This document shows, in pieces, positions 9,539 to 22,378 of a DNA stretch of 64,000 bases. Under the pieces are notes generated by a model. The model was not told the DNA's origin. It did not search any database and was given only the letters and a program-made list of their open reading frames with translations. The translations under genes and the position numbers were made by a program. Origin of the DNA: Dehalobacterium formicoaceticum (GTDB taxonomy: Bacteria; Bacillota; Dehalobacteriia; Dehalobacteriales; Dehalobacteriaceae); assembly GCF_002224645.1 (NCBI RefSeq), contig NZ_CP022121.1, positions 2,176,501-2,240,500 of the forward strand, in the 5' to 3' direction. Within the stretch, counting starts at the first letter, position 1. Every line of letters starts with the position of its first letter.

Positions 9539-10465
9539 TTATAACCCTTGGATTTCTTGTTCTAGAATTTTGATATAAATTGCTCCTAAATCGCTTAAGG
9601 TATGTTCACTACGCAAAATATAACCGGCGTATAAAATTTGATTATTATCTGAAAGTTTAATAGCCTGTATTTCACTTAATTTTGAATGCATCTCGTCACC
9701 ATTACTATTTGTTAAATCAGGGCCAATACTAAAACAATTACTCCATCTTACCAATGCTATTTTAGTACAACGATCGATAACATGGATGTTTTTATCAAGA
9801 ATTTCTTTAAAGATAATTTCTTCAGAGAAATGGAGGAGATTATCATCACCTTGGCCGTAAGTTACAAAGGGATACCCTTTAAGGTCTTCCATAGTTAGTG
9901 CATCCATGGAAGCTAAGGGATGTTCCTTTCTGACAAAAACATAATTTTCAATTTCTCCTAAAGGATAAAAAATGAGACTACTGGTATTTAATATCTTTTT
10001 CATAGTATTTAAATAATTTTCGTTAAGACATAGAACACCTATCTCACTTCTTCTGGTTGTCACATCATGAATGACTTCGTGGGTTGGACATTCACGAATG
10101 GCAATATCATATCGATCAAGTCCAATCTTATCAATAATTTTAATAAAAGCTTTGGTTGCAAAAGGTAGCCGCTGTGTAGAAACTGAAAAACGCATGGGAA
10201 GAGACTTTTTATGCTGATAGCGTCTTTCTAAATATTCAGCTTGTTCTACAATATCCTTGGCATGACTGATATAATCCCGGCCCTCATATGTTAACTCAAC
10301 ACCTCTGCTATTTCTTTTGAATAAAACAATACCCAGGCTTTGTTCCACTTCTTTAATAGCTGTTGATAAAGTGGATTGAGAAATAAAAAGGGATTTTGCA
10401 GCAGCAGAGATAGACTGATGCTTTGAAATTTCAATCATATATCTCATATTTTGTAACGATATCAT
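9539..10465 (-). CDS. LysR-family transcriptional regulator
   Basis: This is a complete 308-residue LysR protein. The N-terminal winged HTH (residues 1-60) has SISAAAKSLFISQSTLSTAI followed by KEVEQSLGIVLFKRNSRG. A linker helix (~60-90) precedes the two-lobed effector-binding domain (~92-300). The ATG at 10465 has an AAGGAAG ribosome site. Before the IS1634-type element inserted, this gene was divergent from the riboswitch-controlled nitrogenase-like operon, so it may once have shared that control region. Its effector is unknown. Confidence 0.9.
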   Translation of the reverse strand: MISLQNMRYMIEISKHQSISAAAKSLFISQSTLSTAIKEVEQSLGIVLFKRNSRGVELTYEGRDYISHAKDIVEQAEYLERRYQHKKSLPMRFSVSTQRLPFATKAFIKIIDKIGLDRYDIAIRECPTHEVIHDVTTRRSEIGVLCLNENYLNTMKKILNTSSLIFYPLGEIENYVFVRKEHPLASMDALTMEDLKGYPFVTYGQGDDNLLHFSEEIIFKEILDKNIHVIDRCTKIALVRWSNCFSIGPDLTNSNGDEMHSKLSEIQAIKLSDNNQILYAGYILRSEHTLSDLGAIYIKILEQEIQGL

Positions 10466-10665: not shown

Positions 10666-12525
10666 CTAGTTTAATAATTTTTTAATTTTCCCGTTTAATT
10701 CCTTTGGTCTATAATGAAGCCTATCCAGATTAAGTGATGTTAATTCCATTAATGTATCAAGGGCCTTGCTACCATGATAGAGTGCCATGTATTCAATATC
10801 GTGTACGTTGGTGACATTCATATTTTTAAGTGTAGTAATTAGGTTTTCTGGAGTTATATGAGTATGTTGTTCGTCCAATTTAGCCTCTAATAGGCGATAT
10901 ACCAATAGGGCTGTAAAACAGATCATGAAGTGGGCCTTGATACGATTAGGCAATCTGTGATTTATAGGCCTCCCGGTGAAATTGGTTTTCATAATTCTGA
11001 AACACTCTTCAATCTGATATCTTTTGTGTGATATTGCGAGAATATCTTGAGCACGATCTTCGAGATTAGTCGCCACTGCATAATAGCCATCGTATTTTTC
11101 TTCCTCAGCAATTTTCTCCTCGTCCAGGACATAATTAATAACTGCCTTTTCACCAGATTTTGTATGAGAGATTCTTTTCATGAATCTTTTTACATCATTC
11201 GGTCCCTTCTTAATTTCTTCAGGATCCTTTCTAGCTAATAGTTTTTTTGCCCGCTCTATCTGGCTTCTCCGTACTGATCTTTGATACTCCATCATTTTTC
11301 GTGAAAATCTTATGATTAAGCGTTGCCTTAAAAGTCCGGTCGATTTCCTAGACTTAACACTACCATTTTTTAATGTTATTTCTTCGCTTAAACCAATGTC
11401 AAGGGCTTTGTCAGCAAAAATTACTTTGTAAGCAAAATCGTTATACAAAGGTAAATTTTCTTTTGAGTACTGATCAAAGGTTGTCATTTTTTTGATTGTG
11501 ACAGGGGAGTCGTTTGACAATAAATGATAGTCATAGTCATTAAAAACTGCCTCCTTAAGAGTATTGCTTAATTTTTTAATTGATTGAGTGACAATAAAAG
11601 CCCTGCCACCCATGCTATTAAATTTACGGATGCTATAAGAACCAAGTCCCGCATCGGCACAATAAATAAATTTGGCTCCATTCAGCATCTTTAAGACTTC
11701 TTTTTCCAGGGGGATGGCAGTAGTTTGTTCACTTGTGTTCCCGGGATGCAGGGACATGGTGATGGGAATACCTTGGCTATCCATGAAAAGCCCCATCTCC
11801 ACAATCGGATTAGGGCGATGCTCCTTACTTATCCCGAATTTTCTTAAGCCACAAATAACTTCCCCTGTAACTTCATCAACAATATCCTCGTCAGGTTGTT
11901 CGCATTCACAATAGAAGTTTGTGCAATCATAGTAGATAATAGAAGAATCTCTTTTGACGACAGCATTACTGTTTTTATAAAGCCATGTTAAGTAAACGTC
12001 ATAATGCTCCTCTAAAATATCCATAAACCGAAGAATATGCTGGTAATCAAATTCTGGCTGCTCATAATATGAATTCAAATCATTCCAGGTGGAAAGTTTA
12101 GAACCGGGTTTTAGTATTCTAGCGTACGTTAGGAAACGGAGGATTTTAAAACTATCATAGGTGTTCTTGCATTCTGAAATATTTTGCTTAAAAAAAGTTT
12201 TAAGATTAAGACCTTTCATAATATCTTGCAGAACAAAATAACCTATGTTCAAACAAGTGGATGCCGATGCCTCGTCTTGTGTATGCTTGACTTTCTCATT
12301 AAAATTAGCAGTTAGGTTAAATGTGACCCTGCCAACGCGGTATTCCTCGTTCATCTTTTTAATTTCTTCTCTTACGTAGGTTTCGGGGTCATCAGTTATT
12401 TTCAAGAGTTCGGAATGTTTTCCGAAATTCTTGATATTTTTGGTAGTAGTTTTTTTGCCGTTTCTTATTCCTTGCTGCGCATAATAAGTAGGATCTTTAA
12501 GCCGTTTATCATAGTATAGTTTCAA
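10666..12525 (-). CDS. IS1634-family transposase
   Basis: This 619-residue DDE transposase of the IS4/IS1634 group catalyses element movement. The N-terminus MKLYYDKRLKDPTYYAQQGI is typical of the family. The catalytic core shows IIYYDCTNFYCE (first Asp), FIYCADAGLGSYSIRKF (second Asp) and the YQIEECFRIMKTNFTGRPI signature carrying the catalytic Glu (Y-x2-R-x3-E-x6-K-like). The frame is uninterrupted, so the protein may still be active. It has low-GC codon use like its surroundings. Confidence 0.93.
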   Translation of the reverse strand: MKLYYDKRLKDPTYYAQQGIRNGKKTTTKNIKNFGKHSELLKITDDPETYVREEIKKMNEEYRVGRVTFNLTANFNEKVKHTQDEASASTCLNIGYFVLQDIMKGLNLKTFFKQNISECKNTYDSFKILRFLTYARILKPGSKLSTWNDLNSYYEQPEFDYQHILRFMDILEEHYDVYLTWLYKNSNAVVKRDSSIIYYDCTNFYCECEQPDEDIVDEVTGEVICGLRKFGISKEHRPNPIVEMGLFMDSQGIPITMSLHPGNTSEQTTAIPLEKEVLKMLNGAKFIYCADAGLGSYSIRKFNSMGGRAFIVTQSIKKLSNTLKEAVFNDYDYHLLSNDSPVTIKKMTTFDQYSKENLPLYNDFAYKVIFADKALDIGLSEEITLKNGSVKSRKSTGLLRQRLIIRFSRKMMEYQRSVRRSQIERAKKLLARKDPEEIKKGPNDVKRFMKRISHTKSGEKAVINYVLDEEKIAEEEKYDGYYAVATNLEDRAQDILAISHKRYQIEECFRIMKTNFTGRPINHRLPNRIKAHFMICFTALLVYRLLEAKLDEQHTHITPENLITTLKNMNVTNVHDIEYMALYHGSKALDTLMELTSLNLDRLHYRPKELNGKIKKLLN

Positions 12526-12734: not shown

Positions 12735-12752
12735 GGCATCAATTGAATAATT

Positions 12753-12902
12753 CGAAATGTTGCAAGGAAATCGGTTAAAATCCGATGCGGTAACGCCACT
12801 GTAAGAGTGAGCCTCTATAAGATGTTTCAACACTGGAAAGAATCTTTCTGGGAAGTTGTTATAGATGGCAATGAACTTGAGCCAGGATACTACTACATTT
12901 CG
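12753..12902 (+). ncRNA. Cobalamin (B12) riboswitch aptamer
   Basis: The conserved core is clear: the GGTTAAAATCCGATGCGGT segment, the CGCCACTGT box, a later AACACTGG, TGGGAAG, and the closing GAGCCAGGATAC. An 8-bp P1 stem closes it (CGAAATGT at 12753-12760 with ACATTTCG at 12895-12902). The family binds adenosylcobalamin or related corrinoids and normally lowers expression when they are abundant. It leads the operon for the NifH-like protein and ABC importer, so these genes should be induced when corrinoid is scarce. A terminator follows. Confidence 0.9.
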
Positions 12903-12950
12903 TTATTACCGAACTTAACGGATTATTAGGTGAGGTCTTTATTTTTTTAT

Positions 12951-12985
12951 AAACTCTTCTGTTAATTGTTCAGGAGAGTTTTTTT
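12951..12985 (+). terminator. Riboswitch expression-platform terminator
   Basis: An 11-bp stem with one mismatch (AAACTCTTCTG / CAGGAGAGTTT) is followed by a run of T, 33 bases before the first gene. Its position between aptamer and start codon fits transcription attenuation by the cobalamin riboswitch. Confidence 0.75.
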
Positions 12986-13017
12986 GATTTGATGGCTATC
13001 ATGAAAGGGATGATGAA

Positions 13018-13863
13018 TTGAAGAGACCGATTAAAATTGCTTTTTATGGAAAAGGAGGAATAGGAAAATCCACAATTGCAAGCAATATAGCAGCTGCAAT
13101 GGGTTCACTTGGATTAAAGGTTTTATTTATTGGCTGTGATCCTAAAAGTGATTCTGTTAAAAATATTGTTGGAGGAAAAATCAAGTCGATGCTTCATTTG
13201 ATCTTGGAAAAGGGAGATTTCTTAGCTGAGGAGGATTTTTTGGAAAAAGGTTTTTTAAATATATCTTGTATTGAAACAGGCGGCCCTTCTCCTGGGGTTG
13301 GCTGTGCCGGCCGGGGGATCATAACCGTGATGGAAGAACTGGAGAAACATAATATCTTTGATAAAGATTGGGATGTGATTATTTATGATGTTTTAGGCGA
13401 TGTGGTCTGTGGGGGATTTGCAGTACCCATGCGAGAAGGATATGTAGATCGTGTCTTGCTGGTATCTTCCAGTGAATATATGTCCATCTACGCGGCAAAC
13501 AATATTTTAAAAAGTATTGAGGTGTTTTCTGATCAAAAGGAACCCTTCTTAGGTGGAATCATCCATAATCAGCGAAATGATAACGCTATGGGGGGATTGG
13601 TTAGGGATTTTTCAGAAAAAGTGAAAGTACCCATTATCTCAGAAATTCCTTTTGCTAAGGAGATTATATTTAGTGAATTGGATTATAAAACAGTTATTGA
13701 AAAATATCCGGATTCAGCTATAGCAAGCAGATTTATCGAAACATCGAAAACTATTATGGCAGGGATTACAGGGGTAATCCCCAAACCACTGGAAGAGGGG
13801 GAGTTGGAACAATTATCCAAAGAATATCTTTCGTTGATTGTAGATGAGGGGCAGCTATGTTAG
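13018..13863 (+). CDS. NifH/BchL-like [4Fe-4S] ATPase reductase
   Basis: This 281-residue protein is related to the nitrogenase iron protein, which couples ATP hydrolysis to one-electron transfer to a component-1 partner. It has the P-loop YGKGGIGKST (residues 10-19), the switch motif GCDPKSDS and both 4Fe-4S cysteines: C96 in GVGCAGRG and C131 in GDVVCGGF, matching NifH Cys97 and Cys132. The start is a TTG at 13018 behind AAAGGGATGATGAA. It is the first gene after the cobalamin riboswitch and overlaps the next gene by 7 bases. The absence of nifDKEN-type partners argues against nitrogen fixation. A redox role on a tetrapyrrole or other small substrate is inference. Confidence 0.9.
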   Translation: MKRPIKIAFYGKGGIGKSTIASNIAAAMGSLGLKVLFIGCDPKSDSVKNIVGGKIKSMLHLILEKGDFLAEEDFLEKGFLNISCIETGGPSPGVGCAGRGIITVMEELEKHNIFDKDWDVIIYDVLGDVVCGGFAVPMREGYVDRVLLVSSSEYMSIYAANNILKSIEVFSDQKEPFLGGIIHNQRNDNAMGGLVRDFSEKVKVPIISEIPFAKEIIFSELDYKTVIEKYPDSAIASRFIETSKTIMAGITGVIPKPLEEGELEQLSKEYLSLIVDEGQLC

Positions 13864-14303
13864 AAAAAACCTTAGTTCAGAAGGATAGTTTTAATGAACT
13901 GATTGAATTAGCATTGAGTAAGAAAGGTATCTATGTGTTGTCCATCGGTCCTCCCGGTTGTTTAAGGGTTCTCTTTTTTAGAGCAATGAGAGCTGAACTA
14001 TTAGAGCAGTATTTTTCATTTGCAATAAAACCCATCGATGTAATATCAGCTTCCTATGAAGATCGGCTTATTGAGCATATTTCCAAGATGATATCCGAAA
14101 AGAGGGAGATGCGAGGTCTGATTCTCTACCTGTCTTGCTCTGAAATACTGACGGGAATGAAGTTTGAAAAAACCCAAAGAACGCTATGGGAGAAATATAA
14201 TATGCCGGTATATGTTTTTAAGAGAGGACCTTTTGCAAAAAGAACAGGAGCGCCTAGGGAGAAAATGAAGGAGTTGATTTCTAAAATCAATGAATATCTA
14301 TGA
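13857..14303 (+). CDS. Miniature nitrogenase component-1-like protein (148 aa)
   Basis: This short protein resembles only the first domain of NifD/NifK-type component-1 subunits. SIGPPGCLRVL places C35 where NifD/NifK carry a P-cluster cysteine (GPxGC). After DVISASYEDRLIEHISKMI, the stretch LILYLSCSEILTG puts C94 at the place of the second cysteine (the STCPTxLIGDD-like site). The rest of a normal ~450-residue subunit is missing. The frame is clean and overlaps both neighbours (7 bases with the NifH-like gene, 14 with the NifD-like gene). It is therefore a maintained small subunit rather than a remnant. The homology is read by motif and needs a profile search. Confidence 0.7.
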   Translation: MLEKTLVQKDSFNELIELALSKKGIYVLSIGPPGCLRVLFFRAMRAELLEQYFSFAIKPIDVISASYEDRLIEHISKMISEKREMRGLILYLSCSEILTGMKFEKTQRTLWEKYNMPVYVFKRGPFAKRTGAPREKMKELISKINEYL

Positions 14304-15492
14304 TCGATACTTACCGCAACTTGTGAGTGATTATTCCGGCTTACATTCATTGTTATACCATCTGCCAACTTCGATAATCTTATTGTCTCCCAGTGGATGC
14401 AATCAGCCAATCAGAGAAGTGGATGAATATCGAGACTTTTCCAACACCAATCAATATACGACAAAACTTGACGACGCCCAAGTCACTCTTGGTATTGAAG
14501 GGATTATCAATGAAAAGTTATTATCCAATATGGAGCGGGATGTGGAATTTATTGCAGTCATGGGAACAGCCATCACAGATATCATCGGGACAGACCTTGG
14601 GGTGGTATCCCAAAAAATCGAGTCAATTTCAGGAAAACCGGTAGTATTTTTTAATACCAATGGATTTAAAGCCTATCCTAAAGCTATTGCACAGGCGTAT
14701 TTGCAAATTTTACCCTTTATTGTGGAAAAGGATCCGTCCGGAGATAAGAAAAAAGTCAATTTAATTGGTTTTCATCCGCTAGTCCATGGTTCTGATAAAT
14801 TTTTAGTACAATTTTTGGATACTTTTCACCATGATCAAATTGAATTTTGTTTGCCCGGCTTTGATTGTTTTGGGAAAGCCCATGCAAAATTATCAAAATC
14901 CGCTTACATATCCATTATCTTATCAGAGGAAGGGGTGAAACTGGGAGAAAAATTAAAAGAGGCAGATGGAGTTCCCTATGAAAAATTGTTGCCCATCTCG
15001 AAATCAGGGATGAAAGATCTGATTCGAGTTTTAGAAGAATATACGGGTGAAACATATCCGGAGATGGATCAAGAGGAAGACTATTATTTTAAAAAGCAGG
15101 GAAATGCAAAAAAAGTTTTGATCATAGGAGAGCCATTTTTTGCGGCATTTTTGCGAAAAGCGCTGCAAAAGGATTTTGGACTGGATGAGGTACAGATTTT
15201 GTCTTTGTTACCTAAAGAAAACTTTTCAAAGGACAAATTAAGTGAAGCACTTTATGAGGATATCTTTTTTGATACTCATGAAGATAAATTTTTGGGCAGG
15301 ATCCAGGCAGCAGATCTGATTATTGGTGATCCCCTATTAAGAGAGACGATTCCACAAATTAGTGAGAAGACTTTTATTGAGATACCCTATTTTGGTTTAA
15401 GTGGAAGAGAGTATGCTAAAATCCCTTATGACTATATAGGCATCAAAGGGTTTGAATATTTTAAACGACAATTAATAATAACGGGGAGATAA
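14290..15492 (+). CDS. Nitrogenase component-1-like protein (NifD/CfbD-like, 400 aa)
   Basis: This is a divergent component-1 protein with the three Rossmann-like domains expected of the nitrogenase superfamily. C37 in LLSPSGCNQPI corresponds to the NifD Cys88 / NifK Cys95 type ligand. The TTKLDDAQVTLG stretch matches the segment before the next ligand, but that ligand position reads VMGTAITDIIGTDLG and has no cysteine. The FeMo-cofactor cysteine and histidine are not recognisable. It is translationally coupled (14-base overlap) to the 148-residue gene and ends 4 bases before the importer lipoprotein. Together the two proteins supply three cysteines, which may ligate a shared cluster (inference). 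Confidence 0.8.
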   Translation: MNIYDRYLPQLVSDYSGLHSLLYHLPTSIILLSPSGCNQPIREVDEYRDFSNTNQYTTKLDDAQVTLGIEGIINEKLLSNMERDVEFIAVMGTAITDIIGTDLGVVSQKIESISGKPVVFFNTNGFKAYPKAIAQAYLQILPFIVEKDPSGDKKKVNLIGFHPLVHGSDKFLVQFLDTFHHDQIEFCLPGFDCFGKAHAKLSKSAYISIILSEEGVKLGEKLKEADGVPYEKLLPISKSGMKDLIRVLEEYTGETYPEMDQEEDYYFKKQGNAKKVLIIGEPFFAAFLRKALQKDFGLDEVQILSLLPKENFSKDKLSEALYEDIFFDTHEDKFLGRIQAADLIIGDPLLRETIPQISEKTFIEIPYFGLSGREYAKIPYDYIGIKGFEYFKRQLIITGR

Positions 15493-15495
15493 AAA

Positions 15496-16602
15496 ATGAA
15501 AAGATATAAGCAAATACTATTAGTATTAATGGCTTTGGCTTTATTAATTACAGGATGTGCCCAAAATAATGACAACTCGGATCAAGGAACAGAACCGGAG
15601 GGACAAGCAGATGGTCAAGGAGGATTTAAAACAGTGGTTGATATGTTAGGGCGGGAAGTTGAAGTGAGGAATGAAATCAACTCAATGGTTGTAACCCCTG
15701 TTCCATATGGTTCCATCATCTATGCCATTGACGGCACAATGGAAAAAATAGTGGCCGTTAATCCTGATGTTAAAAGCGAATATGAAAAATCTCTGCTGAG
15801 CACATTAGCTCCGGAATTTGCAGATGTTTCGGTTGATTATGTTTCCACAGATTTTACCATTAATGTGGAAGCACTGCTGAATCTAAAGCCGGAAGTTGTC
15901 GTTCTTTGGCACGTTCAAGAAGATGATATCAGAAAATTAGAACAAGTGAATATACCGGCAGTTGCTCTTGATCAAGGCGGAGGTTCCAATCTTGAAAAGA
16001 CGAGAGATAATATCGAAATCATAGGAAAACTATTGAATAAAGAACAACAAGCGGAAAATTTAAATCAATATAATATTGATGTGGAAGATTATTTTACAGC
16101 TAAACAAGATCAAATTGCCGAAAATGAAAAACCAAAAGTTTTATATATCAGAGATAAGAACTTAGCGGTTGCAGCCGGCGAAAGCTTCAATAGACAGCTG
16201 ATCGAATTAACCGGAGGTATTAACGTAGCAGCAGGGGTCAAGGGTTCTTGGACTGGGGTTTCTATGGAGGAAGTGCTCAATTGGAATCCGGAGATTATCT
16301 ATTTAAGCAATTTTGATAGTTTTCAACCGGAAGACCTATATAATAATACCATTGAAGGACAGGATTGGAGTCAAATAGATGCAGTGAAAAATAAAAGAGT
16401 GTATAAAACACCGGTAGGAATCATTAGATGGGACGCTCCATGTGTGGAAACACCTTTATTTATGAAATGGCTGGGCCAAATACAGCAGCCGGAATTATTC
16501 AATGATTATGTACTGGATGAAGATATTAGGAATTTTTATAAGGAATTTTTCAGTTATGATTTAACAGAGCAGGAATTAAATAAAATGCTAAATAGATCAT
16601 AA
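15496..16602 (+). CDS. ABC importer substrate-binding lipoprotein (BtuF/FecB-like)
   Basis: This 368-residue lipoprotein has a signal peptide with lipobox LITGC (C21) and an acidic Gln/Asn-rich linker. The periplasmic-binding fold of the metal-chelate/B12 family follows, with VVDMLGREVEV near the start and a KPEVVVLW region. The family binds siderophores, haem, cobalamin or other metal chelates outside the cell. It begins 4 bases after the NifD-like gene and lies under the cobalamin riboswitch, so a corrinoid or related tetrapyrrole is the most likely ligand. The sequence alone cannot choose among chelates. Confidence 0.88.
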   Translation: MKRYKQILLVLMALALLITGCAQNNDNSDQGTEPEGQADGQGGFKTVVDMLGREVEVRNEINSMVVTPVPYGSIIYAIDGTMEKIVAVNPDVKSEYEKSLLSTLAPEFADVSVDYVSTDFTINVEALLNLKPEVVVLWHVQEDDIRKLEQVNIPAVALDQGGGSNLEKTRDNIEIIGKLLNKEQQAENLNQYNIDVEDYFTAKQDQIAENEKPKVLYIRDKNLAVAAGESFNRQLIELTGGINVAAGVKGSWTGVSMEEVLNWNPEIIYLSNFDSFQPEDLYNNTIEGQDWSQIDAVKNKRVYKTPVGIIRWDAPCVETPLFMKWLGQIQQPELFNDYVLDEDIRNFYKEFFSYDLTEQELNKMLNRS

Positions 16603-16613
16603 GAGTGGTGTCT

Positions 16614-17627
16614 ATGAAGATAAATAATGAATATAGAAATGTTTTTATTGTAATTATCATCGTATTCATTGCCGGTATTATTATTTCCCTGAGTGTAGGA
16701 AGATATGCCGTTTCTTTTTCAGAGGTCGTAAGGATTCTGATATCCTTTATCTTTCAAACAGAAGGTACCCAGGATTTGGTGGCAGAAGGGGTTGTTTTAA
16801 ACTTAAGATTACCTCGAGTGTTAGGGGCAATTTTAGTAGGCAGTTCTTTAGCCATATCGGGGGCTTGTTATCAAGGAGTTTTTAAAAACCAACTGGTATC
16901 CCCCGATATATTGGGGGTATCCTCGGGAGCGACTGTAGGAGCTGCTATTGCTATTCTCTTAGGCGGAGATCGATTTATGATTCAGATAGGAGCTTTTTTG
17001 GGTGGGATTGCTGCGGTGCTATTAACAATGATGATACCAAAGCTTTTAAAGAATACTTCCACGATGCTGCTGGTATTGTCCGGCATTATTGTGGGCGGAC
17101 TGATGGGATCCATCATTGGTATTATTAAATTTTTAGCAGATCCGGATGAACAGCTGGCGGAAATTGTCTATTGGCAAATGGGGAGTCTGGCTAAGGTTAA
17201 TCTGCCTGATGTTCTTGGTATTTTGCCGATTGTCGTGATTGCTACTGTGATCCTTCTCTCCTTATCATGGCGGATCAATATTTTAACATTAGGGGATCAA
17301 GAGGCTCAATTATCGGGCGTCAATGTAAAGATGATTCGTTCTATTGTAATCATCTGTGCTACCATGTTGACTGCTTCTTCAGTCAGCATCAGCGGAACTA
17401 TTGGTTGGTTGGGATTGGTTATCCCCCATCTGGCAAGGATTTTGATTGGCCCGGATAATGTCAAGGTTTTTCCAATATCTTTGCTGTTGGGTTCAATCTT
17501 TCTGGTTACCATTGATACCTTGGCCAGGGTATTAACTACGGCAGAATTACCATTGAGTATTTTAACAGGTTTGATCGGGGCACCATTTTATTTCTGGATA
17601 CTTTCCAGGCAAAGAGTGAGGTTATAG
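16614..17627 (+). CDS. FecCD/BtuC-type ABC permease
   Basis: This ~337-residue membrane protein has about ten hydrophobic helices. It carries FecCD-family signatures: LRLPRVLGAILVGSSLAISG near residues 60-80, NQLVSPDILGVSSGATVGA, and GTIGWLGLVIPHLARILIGP near the C-terminus. It forms the membrane channel with the following ATPase. The frame could start at GTG 16605 or 16608, but the ATG at 16614 follows a GGTG-containing ribosome site and gives the usual short basic N-terminus. It lies 11 bases after the lipoprotein gene. Confidence 0.9.
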   Translation: MKINNEYRNVFIVIIIVFIAGIIISLSVGRYAVSFSEVVRILISFIFQTEGTQDLVAEGVVLNLRLPRVLGAILVGSSLAISGACYQGVFKNQLVSPDILGVSSGATVGAAIAILLGGDRFMIQIGAFLGGIAAVLLTMMIPKLLKNTSTMLLVLSGIIVGGLMGSIIGIIKFLADPDEQLAEIVYWQMGSLAKVNLPDVLGILPIVVIATVILLSLSWRINILTLGDQEAQLSGVNVKMIRSIVIICATMLTASSVSISGTIGWLGLVIPHLARILIGPDNVKVFPISLLLGSIFLVTIDTLARVLTTAELPLSILTGLIGAPFYFWILSRQRVRL

Positions 17628-17629
17628 CG

Positions 17630-18403
17630 ATGATACTTAAGGTAGAGAATCTATCATATTATTATGATAAGAGTAAAATAATATTTAAAAATGCAAATTT
17701 TTCATTGCATAAGGGAGATATATTGACCATTCTTGGGCCAAATGGCGCAGGAAAATCCACGATGCTGAATTGTCTGACCAACGTATTAAAGCCAAAAAGC
17801 GGACAAATATTAATTGAAGGTCAGAATATTGCAAATATGAATTTCAATGAAATTGCAAGAAAGATTGGATATGTTCCCCAGATACATATCCCCACCTTTG
17901 GTTTTACGGTAACGGAATTTGTGACTATGGGATTAGCGCCAAAGGTTGGCCTTTTTGCAAAGCCAACGAGAAAAGATATCCTCATTGCTGAAGAGATAAT
18001 GGACAAGATGGAGATATATCATTTGAGGAATAAGCCCTATACCCAAATCAGCGGAGGAGAGAGGCAAAAGGCAACCATTGCCAAGGTGCTGGTGCAGGAT
18101 CCTAAAATAATTATTTTAGATGAGCCAACAGCACATCTTGATTTCGGTAATCAACATAAAACGGTGGGGCTGGTGCGAGATTTGGCAAAGGAGGGATACA
18201 CCGTCATCATGACAACCCATCAACCCAATCATGCGATCATGTTAGATAGCCACACAGCTATTATTAATAGCCAAGGGAAGTTTTTATTTGGTAAAACACG
18301 GGATATTGTTTCCGAAGGGATTTTATCTAATATGTACGGAATGGCAATAAAGATGCCCTATGTAGATGAAATTCAACAAAGAATTGTGTGTGCCACCGGA
18401 TAG
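17630..18403 (+). CDS. FecE/BtuD-type ABC ATP-binding protein
   Basis: This 257-residue ATPase powers the importer. It has Walker A GPNGAGKST (residues 36-44), the Q-loop GYVPQIH, the ABC signature ISGGERQKATIAKVL, Walker B IIILDEPTAHLD and the H-loop TTHQPNH. It begins 3 bases after the permease stop and is the last gene of the riboswitch operon. The C-terminus is of the length usual for FecE-like proteins. No terminator is obvious within the next 40 bases. Confidence 0.93.
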   Translation: MILKVENLSYYYDKSKIIFKNANFSLHKGDILTILGPNGAGKSTMLNCLTNVLKPKSGQILIEGQNIANMNFNEIARKIGYVPQIHIPTFGFTVTEFVTMGLAPKVGLFAKPTRKDILIAEEIMDKMEIYHLRNKPYTQISGGERQKATIAKVLVQDPKIIILDEPTAHLDFGNQHKTVGLVRDLAKEGYTVIMTTHQPNHAIMLDSHTAIINSQGKFLFGKTRDIVSEGILSNMYGMAIKMPYVDEIQQRIVCATG

Positions 18404-18443: not shown

Positions 18444-18698
18444 CTACCGATACTGTACATATTCCATAAATCGTTGTACAGCTAATGATGCAGATTTTTT
18501 ATCTCTCAAAGCAAGGCCAATATTCCTGTATGCCGGCACATCCAACTCTTTTTGTACGATACGGTAAGGCGCACGCTTCAGAATCAACTGCGGCAGGATA
18601 CTTATCCCAAGTCCGCTTTCGACCATGGACATGATGGCGTAATTTGACCGACTATCTTCAAGCGGGGACAACAAGTAAAGACATCCATGCAAGAGCAA
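18444..18698 (-). pseudogene. LysR-family regulator, C-terminal remnant
   Basis: The frame encodes only the last third of a LysR effector domain: SNYAIMSMVESGLGISILPQ, then LILKRAPYRIVQKEL and a typical C-terminus. No HTH region is found upstream on the minus strand, where a gene for a flavin/PNPOx-type protein follows instead. A nested stem-loop at 18682-18718 marks the breakpoint. This is a truncated, presumably dead gene. Confidence 0.7.
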
Positions 18699-21042: not shown

Positions 21043-22125
21043 ATGAAAAATGTATTTGCTACTAAACAGGGTATCATCGGAGTTGGTATAGTTATTGGTA
21101 TTTTAGCGCCATTATTACAGTTTTGGGGGAACCCGGCCAACATGGGTATTTGCGTGGCCTGCTTTTTGCGGGATATCACAGGGGCTTTAGGTTTGCATCA
21201 AGCCCCCGTGGTGCAGTATATGCGCCCGGAAATTATCGGTTTTGTCCTGGGGTCTTTTGCTGCTGCATATCTTTTTAAAGAATTCAGACCGCGCCTAGGG
21301 TCTGCACCTTTGGTTCGCTTTGTACTTGGTTTTTTCGCCATGATCGGAGCCTTGATCTTCCTGGGTTGCCCCTGGCGGGCATTGCTGCGTCTGGCCGGCG
21401 GCGACTTCAATGCTATTTTGGGGTTGCTAGGGTTGGGCGTAGGTATTTGGATTGGCACCTTGTTTCTTAAAACCGGATATAATTTAGGAGCCAGCCATAA
21501 GACCTATACCTCCGTAGGGTGGATTTTCCCCATCATTATGCTCAGTTTTCTTATCTTGATGTTCTTCAATCCTCAGATCCCGGGGGAAGGGAAAAGCGGA
21601 ATTATTAACTACAGTGTAGAAGGACCGGGATCTCTCCATGCACCTTTGATCATTTCTCTTGTCGCAGGCCTGGCCATTGGCTTTGTCGCGCAAAGGAGCC
21701 GTTTTTGTACTATGGGAGCCATACGTGACCTGGTTTTATTCAAACAGACCCATCTTTTCATGGGCATCGTAAGTCTGGCCGTGACAGCCTTTGTCGTTAA
21801 CCTGATTCTCGGTCAGTTTCATCCCGGGTTTGCCAATCAGCCCGTTGCCCATACCATGCACATCTGGAATTTTTCCGGCATGGTTCTGGCAGGCTTGGCT
21901 TTTGCCCTTGCCGGCGGCTGCCCCGGCCGTCAGCTCTTTTTATCAGGTGAGGGAGATGGGGATGCCGCCGTATTTGTCATCGGTATGGTCGTCGGTGCCG
22001 CCTTTGCCCACAACTTCGGACTGGCCAGTTCTGCTGCCGGCGTCACATCCGGGGGTATCATTGCGCTCTTTATCGGTTTGGCAGCTTGCCTGCTCATTGG
22101 ATTTACCATGAGAGAAGCGGTATAA
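21043..22125 (+). CDS. yedE: YedE-family selenium/sulfur transporter
   Basis: This 360-residue integral membrane protein has about ten helices in two YeeE/YedE repeats. Each repeat carries a conserved Cys motif: ANMGICVACFLRD with FLGCPWRALLR in the first half, and QRSRFCTMGAIRD with AGGCPGRQLF in the second. These cysteines are thought to pass a thiolate or selenide-bearing group across the membrane. It opens a co-directional set with TusA-like, DUF3343, YjeF-like and MoaE-like genes. Sets like this accompany selenium-dependent molybdenum hydroxylases. The GC content is higher than in the genes before it. Confidence 0.9.
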   Translation: MKNVFATKQGIIGVGIVIGILAPLLQFWGNPANMGICVACFLRDITGALGLHQAPVVQYMRPEIIGFVLGSFAAAYLFKEFRPRLGSAPLVRFVLGFFAMIGALIFLGCPWRALLRLAGGDFNAILGLLGLGVGIWIGTLFLKTGYNLGASHKTYTSVGWIFPIIMLSFLILMFFNPQIPGEGKSGIINYSVEGPGSLHAPLIISLVAGLAIGFVAQRSRFCTMGAIRDLVLFKQTHLFMGIVSLAVTAFVVNLILGQFHPGFANQPVAHTMHIWNFSGMVLAGLAFALAGGCPGRQLFLSGEGDGDAAVFVIGMVVGAAFAHNFGLASSAAGVTSGGIIALFIGLAACLLIGFTMREAV

Positions 22126-22156
22126 GCGGTATAATAGGAATAGGAGGGATTTAGAT

Positions 22157-22378
22157 ATGAGCAATACGATTGATGTCAGAGGACTTTCCTGTCCCCAGCC
22201 TGTGATCATGACCCTGAACGCCATCAAAAAAACCAAGGACGGCGAGCTTGTGGTTTTGGTAGACACAGATACGGCTAAGGAGAATGTCAGCCGCGCCTCC
22301 CAGTCCCAGGGCTGGATGGCGTCAGATATTCAAGCAGAAGGCGATGGTTACAGGATTGTTTTAAGAAAGGAAAATTAA
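22157..22378 (+). CDS. TusA/YedF-type sulfurtransferase-like carrier
   Basis: This 73-residue protein has the TusA fold signature: DVRGLSCPQPVIMTLNAI, with the CPxP cysteine at C12. TusA-like proteins carry a persulfide, and the YedF subgroup is linked to selenium metabolism. The AGGAGGG ribosome site is strong. It lies between yedE and the DUF3343 gene (1-base gap after its stop), which fits handing sulfur or selenium from the transporter to a cofactor-maturation step. YedF proper has an extra C-terminal domain that is absent here; the next gene may supply a related function. Confidence 0.88.
   Translation: MSNTIDVRGLSCPQPVIMTLNAIKKTKDGELVVLVDTDTAKENVSRASQSQGWMASDIQAEGDGYRIVLRKEN

What the first reader, a model, noticed from the sequence alone, without database searches (positions are those of the whole stretch)
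13857..14303. Miniature component-1 protein that shares out the cluster cysteines
The 148-residue protein carries two cysteines (C35 in GPPGCLRVL and C94 in LYLSCSEILTG) at the two P-cluster positions. Its coupled 400-residue partner keeps only C37 in SPSGCNQPI and has lost the second position. Three cysteines split over two unequal chains recall the NB-cluster of BchNB (three Cys plus one Asp), but with a subunit reduced to a single domain. That would be a minimal form of nitrogenase component 1.
Basis: partly seen in the sequence, partly recalled or inferred. Interest (0 to 1): 0.85.

Follow-up and report, generated by a model that had tools for sequence, protein, structure and literature searches.

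The report
One-domain nitrogenase-like subunit under B12 control
A vitamin-B12-switched bacterial operon encodes a nitrogenase-like complex in which one of the two usual large subunits has shrunk to a single domain that still carries its two iron-sulfur cysteines; related bacteria carry the same shrunken part fused to its partner, so it looks like a real, minimal form of this enzyme core rather than a gene remnant.

Summary
The 148-aa ORF is real and intact. It is domain I of a nitrogenase component-1 alpha chain: AlphaFold model pLDDT 84.9, best matches BchN/NifD domain I, VIA Z 14.7. C35 and C94 are invariant in 21 of 21 aligned alphas and align with the Cys88 and Cys154 positions; partner C37 aligns with betaCys95 and is invariant, with D14, in 19 of 19 betas. 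The 2+1 cysteine split is not special to the small chain. Full-length homologues have it, and it was described in 2012 (PMC3464626). New here: (i) the alpha is reduced, from about 440 aa to 272-273 aa in two genomes and 148 aa in the window; (ii) 12 of 380 genomes of another class carry a related gene in which a one-domain alpha is fused to beta; its three cysteines and the Asp are kept in all 11 intact copies, and the alpha part is under purifying selection; (iii) the window operon NifH-alpha-beta-FecB/C/D-type transporter sits behind a cobalamin riboswitch and terminator. Most likely it passes low-potential electrons through a 3Cys(+Asp) [4Fe-4S] cluster to a cobalt or corrinoid compound brought in by the transporter. 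The substrate is inference.

The parts
12740..12914 (+). Cobalamin riboswitch aptamer (RF00174)
   Evidence: 61.5 bits, gathering 31.5, E 8.7e-13; lowest scoring of 11 such riboswitches in this genome
12951..12981 (+). Terminator hairpin (11 bp stem, then a U run to about 12986): probable expression platform
   Evidence: fold -12.8 kcal/mol, z -3.6; missed by the pattern scan, whose loop limit is 8; a terminator also follows the C. simiarum riboswitch
13018..13863 (+). NifH-like Fe protein, 281 aa
   Evidence: PF00142 9.8e-84; below all NCBIfam equivalog cut-offs, best CfbC 312.9 of 402 bits; P-loop and both cluster Cys kept in an 11-row alignment
13857..14303 (+). Mini alpha: single-domain component-1 chain, 148 aa; C35, C94, R37, R123-G124
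   Evidence: no Pfam family significant
14290..15492 (+). Beta: three-domain component-1 chain, 400 aa; C37, D14
   Evidence: PF00148 2.1e-22; model pLDDT 80.9, pTM 0.86; Foldseek NifK, BchB and others, E down to 5.9e-18
15496..16602 (+). Lipoprotein substrate-binding protein, FecB/BtuF type
   Evidence: PF01497 1.4e-22; nearest solved chain 4ovk 7.6e-105, then HI_1472 2.8e-25
16605..17627 (+). FecCD-type permease
   Evidence: PF01032 1.9e-82
17630..18403 (+). ABC transporter ATPase
   Evidence: PF00005 1.4e-33

Best explanation
The 148-aa protein is a functional, reduced alpha chain of a nitrogenase-like component 1: domain I only, which with the 400-aa beta chain holds one Fe-S cluster, probably a [4Fe-4S] ligated by alpha C35, alpha C94, beta C37 and possibly beta D14. 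The NifH-like protein docks on this alpha-beta face and feeds it electrons at the cost of ATP. The substrate sits on the beta side, since the alpha half of the usual substrate cavity is gone. The operon is made when cobalamin is scarce, because the riboswitch and terminator shut it off when cobalamin is present. Its transporter imports a compound, most likely a cobalt chelate or corrinoid, which the complex reduces or opens so that cobalt or the corrinoid can be used. Shown here: homology, domain loss, Cys/Asp conservation, operon, riboswitch and a terminator-like hairpin, and a selected fused form elsewhere. Inferred: cluster, docking, electron flow, the OFF direction of the switch, and substrate.
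For: Fold: the alpha model matches BchN, NifD and NifE domain I over almost its whole length. hhalign puts C35 and C94 on the Cys of six-Cys relatives, and beta C37 likewise. Conservation: 21 of 21 alphas and 19 of 19 betas, plus 11 of 11 intact fused proteins, for C, C, C and D14. Reduction series in the same gene order: about 440 aa (18 full-length rows of A5), 272-273 aa (L039 C. simiarum, L006), 148 aa (window), one-domain alpha fused to beta. The alpha domain is no more decayed than beta: 37.1% identity to C. simiarum against 31.2% for beta. In fused genes the alpha part has NG86 dN/dS 0.12-0.25 in 7 of 8 pairs (one pair not computable) against 0.22-0.30 for beta in 8 of 8; the pairs share sequences. 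Cobalamin riboswitch directly upstream in the window, L039, L040 and fused L085, with terminators in the window and L039. NifH keeps its nucleotide and cluster motifs. No other chain of the family, and no separate domain II-III, was found in this genome.
Against: No structure of the alpha-beta pair, so the convergence of the three Cys is untested. D14 lies one residue from the betaCys70 position when extrapolated from the profile alignment, so its role as ligand is a guess. The window chains sit on long branches (beta 2.06-2.6, alpha 1.76 changes per site), which could mean relaxed constraint. Fused relatives have no NifH gene beside them, and 3 of 12 of those genomes gave none at E<=1e-20, so the core need not work with NifH. 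The riboswitch is directly upstream in only 1 of 12 fused loci and in none of 18 full-length loci. The Selenomonad-type operons have a siderophore-type TonB receptor, and the binding protein resembles HI_1472 and siderophore proteins as well as BtuF, so cobalt or corrinoid is not certain.
Confidence: 0.5

Rival explanations
1. The enzyme reduces the ring of an imported or internal tetrapyrrole (corrinoid or precursor), as CfbCD and DPOR do, rather than releasing metal.
For: NifH-like protein scores best with CfbC among NCBIfam models; alpha domain I is structurally nearest BchN; cobalamin riboswitch.
Against: The alpha part of the tetrapyrrole pocket known from BchN (by recall) is missing; transporter and TonB partners point to import of a metal chelate; fails the CfbC and DPOR cut-offs.
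Confidence: 0.2
2. It is a cofactor-assembly or metal-insertion scaffold (NifEN-like) that loads imported metal into a metallocofactor, not a substrate reductase.
For: Profile of the alpha family matches NifE best among solved chains; Dos Santos et al. suggested this for transporter-linked relatives; HypF and Moco-riboswitch neighbours in other full-length members.
Against: No acceptor enzyme is encoded in the operon; the smallest forms keep only one domain of alpha, leaving little scaffold.
Confidence: 0.2
3. The 148-aa gene is a remnant of a decaying operon.
For: Long branches for both chains; two of the usual three alpha domains lost.
Against: All six genes and the riboswitch are intact; C35, C94, R37 and RG kept; alpha no more diverged than beta; one-domain alpha recurs, fused and under purifying selection.
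Confidence: 0.08

Closest known systems
Nitrogenase-like 2+1-Cys clade of Dos Santos et al. 2012 (Dhaf_1539/1540, Mlab_1040/1039; red clade of their Fig. 4)
   Same: Two Cys in alpha at C88 and C154, one in beta at C95; NifH-like gene; link to ABC transporters in some members (PMC3464626, passages)
   Different: Our full-length homologues have alphas of about 440 aa; the window alpha is 148 aa; cobalamin riboswitch; 1+3-domain fused forms. That the published proteins are orthologues was not tested by sequence.
DPOR (BchL-BchNB)
   Same: NifH-type donor, component-1 fold, 3 Cys and possibly 1 Asp; alpha domain I nearest BchN in structure
   Different: By recall, all three Cys are on BchN and the Asp is on BchB; both chains have three domains
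CfbCD (F430 reductive cyclase)
   Same: NifH-like protein scores best with CfbC
   Different: CfbD is a homodimer (read in a passage of PMC11423573); here the chains are unequal; cut-offs not met
NifEN
   Same: Alpha family profile hits NifE at 1.8e-21
   Different: Lacks one of the NifE ligand Cys (ligand set by recall); linked to a transporter, not to nif genes

Membership tests
Nitrogenase component 1 (PF00148) | Sequence match of the 400-aa chain above Pfam cut-off | tested here: met
   80.0 bits, cut-off 28.6
Nitrogenase component 1 (PF00148) | Direct sequence match of the 148-aa chain to PF00148 | tested here: not met
   No PF00148 hit at E<=1; the only hit is bpMoxR, E 0.043, below its cut-off
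Nitrogenase component 1 fold | 148-aa chain has the fold of alpha domain I | tested here: met
   Foldseek BchN 3aek_A 4.8e-5, TMq 0.69; VIA Z 14.7 over 136 residues, rmsd 3.0
2+1-Cys nitrogenase-like clade (Dos Santos 2012) | Two alpha Cys at C88/C154 and one beta Cys at C95 | tested here: met
   hhalign; conservation
2+1-Cys nitrogenase-like clade (Dos Santos 2012) | Full-length alpha (about 420-450 aa), as in the full-length homologues found here | tested here: not met
   148 aa; no other domains in this genome
DPOR (BchLNB) | NCBIfam equivalog cut-offs | tested here: not met
   BchL model 199.1 of 345.15 bits; BchB 19.0 of 490.35
DPOR (BchLNB) | Three cluster Cys on one chain, Asp on the other | tested here: not met
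   Two conserved Cys on alpha, one on beta; DPOR pattern by recall
Nitrogenase NifDK | Six P-cluster Cys and FeMoco ligands | tested here: not met
   Three conserved Cys; alpha ends before the FeMoco ligand region (ligand positions by recall)
CfbCD | NCBIfam CfbC and CfbD cut-offs | tested here: not met
   312.9 of 402 bits; 13.3 of 268.4 bits
Cobalamin riboswitch RF00174 | Rfam gathering score | tested here: met
   61.5 bits, gathering 31.5
[4Fe-4S] cluster protein | Bound cluster, ligands converge in the complex | not testable with these tools
   Only single-chain models; no coordinates returned

The most novel reading that the evidence does not exclude
A minimal four-domain nitrogenase-like reductase (one alpha domain plus three beta domains, fused into a single protein in some bacteria) is coupled to an importer and reductively frees cobalt or corrinoid when B12 is short; in some lineages it works without any NifH, so nitrogenase-type component 1 would have been cut loose from its Fe protein.
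Probability: 0.2. Interest if true: 0.88.

Novelty: new variant of a known kind. Interest (0 to 1): 0.62.

Why it matters
Component 1 is normally a pair of three-domain chains. A natural one-domain alpha, seen both as a separate gene and fused to beta, shows how little of it is needed to hold the cluster, and gives a small target for testing electron transfer in the superfamily. The B12 switch also gives an uncharacterised nitrogenase-like family its first regulatory clue to function that we found, and so makes its substrate testable.

Tried and rejected
Chance ORF or wrong frame: rejected. Unrelated fold (MoxR or HAD weak hits): not supported by the structure search. Other half of alpha encoded elsewhere in the genome: nothing convincing found (one weak hit, E 0.08, not followed). 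Scan of genome contigs with the 148-aa chain alone: no relatives. Searches for further reduced forms around G126 met only 3-4 genomes. Plain phmmer of alpha against PDB gave only 9spz, a nitrogenase alpha chain, at E 0.031 plus unrelated chains. Weak genome-search hits L014-L020, L022, L023 and L025 were not aligned. L013, L034-beta, L024-beta and the natural full-length alpha-beta fusions L055 and L058 (seen again as L038 and L036) were left out of A6 as partial, overlapping or fused. G540 (fused gene with an in-frame stop) was left out. One dN/dS pair (alpha part, L109-L112) failed. Papers: nothing that links a nitrogenase-like enzyme with a cobalamin riboswitch (0 papers; listings only) or describes a one-domain alpha (listing) or a link to Selenomonas or TonB (listing). 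These searches cover only the held open library.

Full report
WHAT IS THERE. The window is part of a 3.77-Mb single-contig genome. Its small class (43 genomes searched) and its size suggest Dehalobacterium formicoaceticum. That is my inference; one search gave no genome size, and one search's listing says only that this species is the sole pure culture of the class Dehalobacteriia. At 13018-18403 six genes follow each other on the + strand: NifH-like (281 aa), the 148-aa chain, the 400-aa chain, and a lipoprotein binding protein, FecCD permease and ATPase. A cobalamin riboswitch lies at 12740-12914 (61.5 bits), followed by a hairpin and U run at 12951-12986 (-12.8 kcal/mol, z -3.6). The genome has 11 cobalamin riboswitches, this one scoring lowest.

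THE 148-AA CHAIN. Pfam and NCBIfam give no significant family. With an alignment of 21 homologues (A5) AlphaFold gives pLDDT 84.9, pTM 0.81. Foldseek's 44 best rows are all nitrogenase-type component-1 chains (row 45 is not), led by BchN 3aek_A (E 4.8e-5, TMq 0.69). VIA-align puts residues 7-148 on BchN 9efu_A with Z 14.7, rmsd 3.0 over 136 residues, and on NifD and NifE at Z of about 13-14 (rows within 1 of each other are tied). So it is alpha domain I, and the chain stops where domain II would begin. hhalign against a six-Cys nitrogenase-like alpha family (A8) puts C35 on its GP/SPxxC cysteine (alphaCys88) and C94 on its NSC cysteine (alphaCys154). The names Cys88 and Cys154 are nitrogenase numbering, by recall and as used in PMC3464626.

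THE 400-AA CHAIN. PF00148 E 2.1e-22; model pLDDT 80.9, pTM 0.86; Foldseek NifK 4wes_B 5.9e-18, BchB TMq up to 0.78. C37 aligns with the GPxxC cysteine (betaCys95), and the next site (betaCys153) is A94. Among 19 betas (A6) C37, D14, D45, E46 and R48 are invariant. In the 11 intact fused relatives C37 and D14 stay invariant while D45, E46 and R48 do not. D14 is thus the best candidate for a fourth ligand. By extrapolating the profile alignment it lies one residue after the betaCys70 site, so this is a proposal only.

A REDUCTION SERIES. Among 149 related genomes 16 have a beta match at E<=1e-3, and 17 of 398 phylum genomes have one at E<=1e-10 (the samples overlap). Eighteen full-length alphas (412-465 aa in the listings) are in A5. 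Two genomes, C. simiarum (L039) and G126 (L006), have alphas of 272 and 273 aa in the same six-gene order. A search with the window's binding protein (9 of 398 genomes at E<=1e-60) led to G235 and G390, where one ORF of 547 or 571 aa holds an alpha-domain-I part followed by a beta part. A search with the G235 protein found such genes in 12 of 380 genomes of that class. Eleven were aligned (G540 dropped for an in-frame stop) with the window and C. simiarum pairs: alpha C35, R37, C94, R123, G124 and beta D14, C37 are identical in all 13 rows. R123-G124 replaces a CxMxP-like stretch of the full-length chains.

IS THE SMALL CHAIN FUNCTIONAL? Alpha domain I of the window is 37.1% identical to that of C. 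simiarum (143 columns), beta 31.2% (397), NifH 52.7%, transporter proteins 37-43%, so alpha is not decaying faster than beta. Between fused genes of related species NG86 dN/dS is 0.12-0.25 for the alpha part (7 of 8 pairs computed) and 0.22-0.30 for the beta part (8 of 8); the pairs share sequences and are not independent. In a 30-row beta tree the 16 full-length rows are split from the 14 reduced rows (100/99); the fused rows are one group (100/99), and the window joins the 272-273-aa rows (97/91). If that holds, the one-domain state arose at least twice. The window has a long branch (2.06), so its place is less sure.

CONTEXT AND FUNCTION. A cobalamin riboswitch is directly upstream in the window, L039 and L040, and of the transporter-fusion operon in L085. 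It is directly upstream in none of the 18 full-length loci scanned (L041-L056, L058, L059) and in 1 of 12 fused loci. L050 has one about 2.5 kb upstream of its NifH start with a Moco riboswitch between; L056 has one about 6 kb away; L110 has one on the other strand; some contigs end close by. Fused operons of the Selenomonad-like genomes (that name is my inference from a diderm-type gene set) read LysR, fusion, TonB receptor, binding protein, permease, ATPase in the clearest cases (L108, L111, L112). The receptor is siderophore-type by TIGR01783 (184.7 bits, cut-off 223.5, so below it) and by solved relatives BauA and FemA. The window's binding protein is nearest 4ovk (7.6e-105), then HI_1472 (2.8e-25; by recall a molybdate-binding protein), with BtuF weaker. 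No fused locus has a NifH beside it. NifH is elsewhere in 9 of 12 of these genomes; in the five fetched loci an alpha ORF of a different, more Cys-rich nitrogenase-like type is encoded there. Three of 12 genomes (99%, 93% and 75% complete) gave no NifH at E<=1e-20. I therefore propose reduction of an imported metal chelate, in the riboswitch-controlled members a cobalt or corrinoid compound, by an alpha-beta cluster. NifH is the likely electron donor in the window, where it is intact, but is not shown to be needed everywhere.

WHAT IS KNOWN. Dos Santos et al. 2012 (PMC3464626; passages read) describe a clade with two conserved Cys in the NifD/E-like chain (alphaC88, alphaC154) and one in the NifK/N-like chain (betaC95). 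They suggest a non-Cys ligand as in DPOR, and note transporter and hydrogenase-maturation neighbours. Our homologues have the same pattern, and some lie beside HypF. The cysteine split is therefore known. The one-domain alpha, its fusion to beta and the cobalamin riboswitch were not found in the papers searched (search listings only, open library only).

Noticed in passing
Own genome G000:C1:3309921-3313950 (L001, L002): A second nitrogenase-like locus: a NifH::NifE-like fusion of 736 aa followed by a NifN-like chain of 437 aa.
   Followed up: partly
L055:7036-9411 and L058:6984-9491: Natural full-length alpha-beta fusions (791 and 835 aa) next to HypF, with NifH upstream; other HypF-linked pairs in L021, L035, L037.
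   Followed up: partly
L050:4708-4840, L054:10320-10438 and 10771-10890: Moco riboswitches near full-length members of the family, with a MoeA-like gene (recognised by eye) in L050: a hint of a molybdenum or tungsten link in that branch.
   Followed up: no
L039:8901-9740, L040:10565-11404, window 13018-13863: NifH of the reduced-alpha clade has a C-terminal extension of about 25 residues that most of the other aligned NifH rows lack.
   Followed up: no
L117-L121: Selenomonad-like genomes carry another nitrogenase-like operon (Cys-rich alpha and beta, NifH in L118 and L119) beside FecB/C/D-type transporter genes.
   Followed up: partly
window 10666-12525 (-) and 9539-10465 (-): An IS-type transposase lies between a LysR gene and the riboswitch; several relatives have LysR next to the operon, so the insertion may have separated them.
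   Followed up: no
window 18444-18698 (-): Short ORF that looks like the C-terminal piece of a LysR regulator (by eye), probably a gene remnant.
   Followed up: no
window 21043-22378 (+): YedE-like membrane protein and TusA/YedF-like protein, possibly selenium or sulfur metabolism (by eye).
   Followed up: no
L040:11418-11608 (-) and 12844-13027 (-): Two cobalamin riboswitches, one ahead of an EamA-like transporter gene (by eye) and one ending 14 bases before the NifH start, suggesting control of translation there.
   Followed up: no
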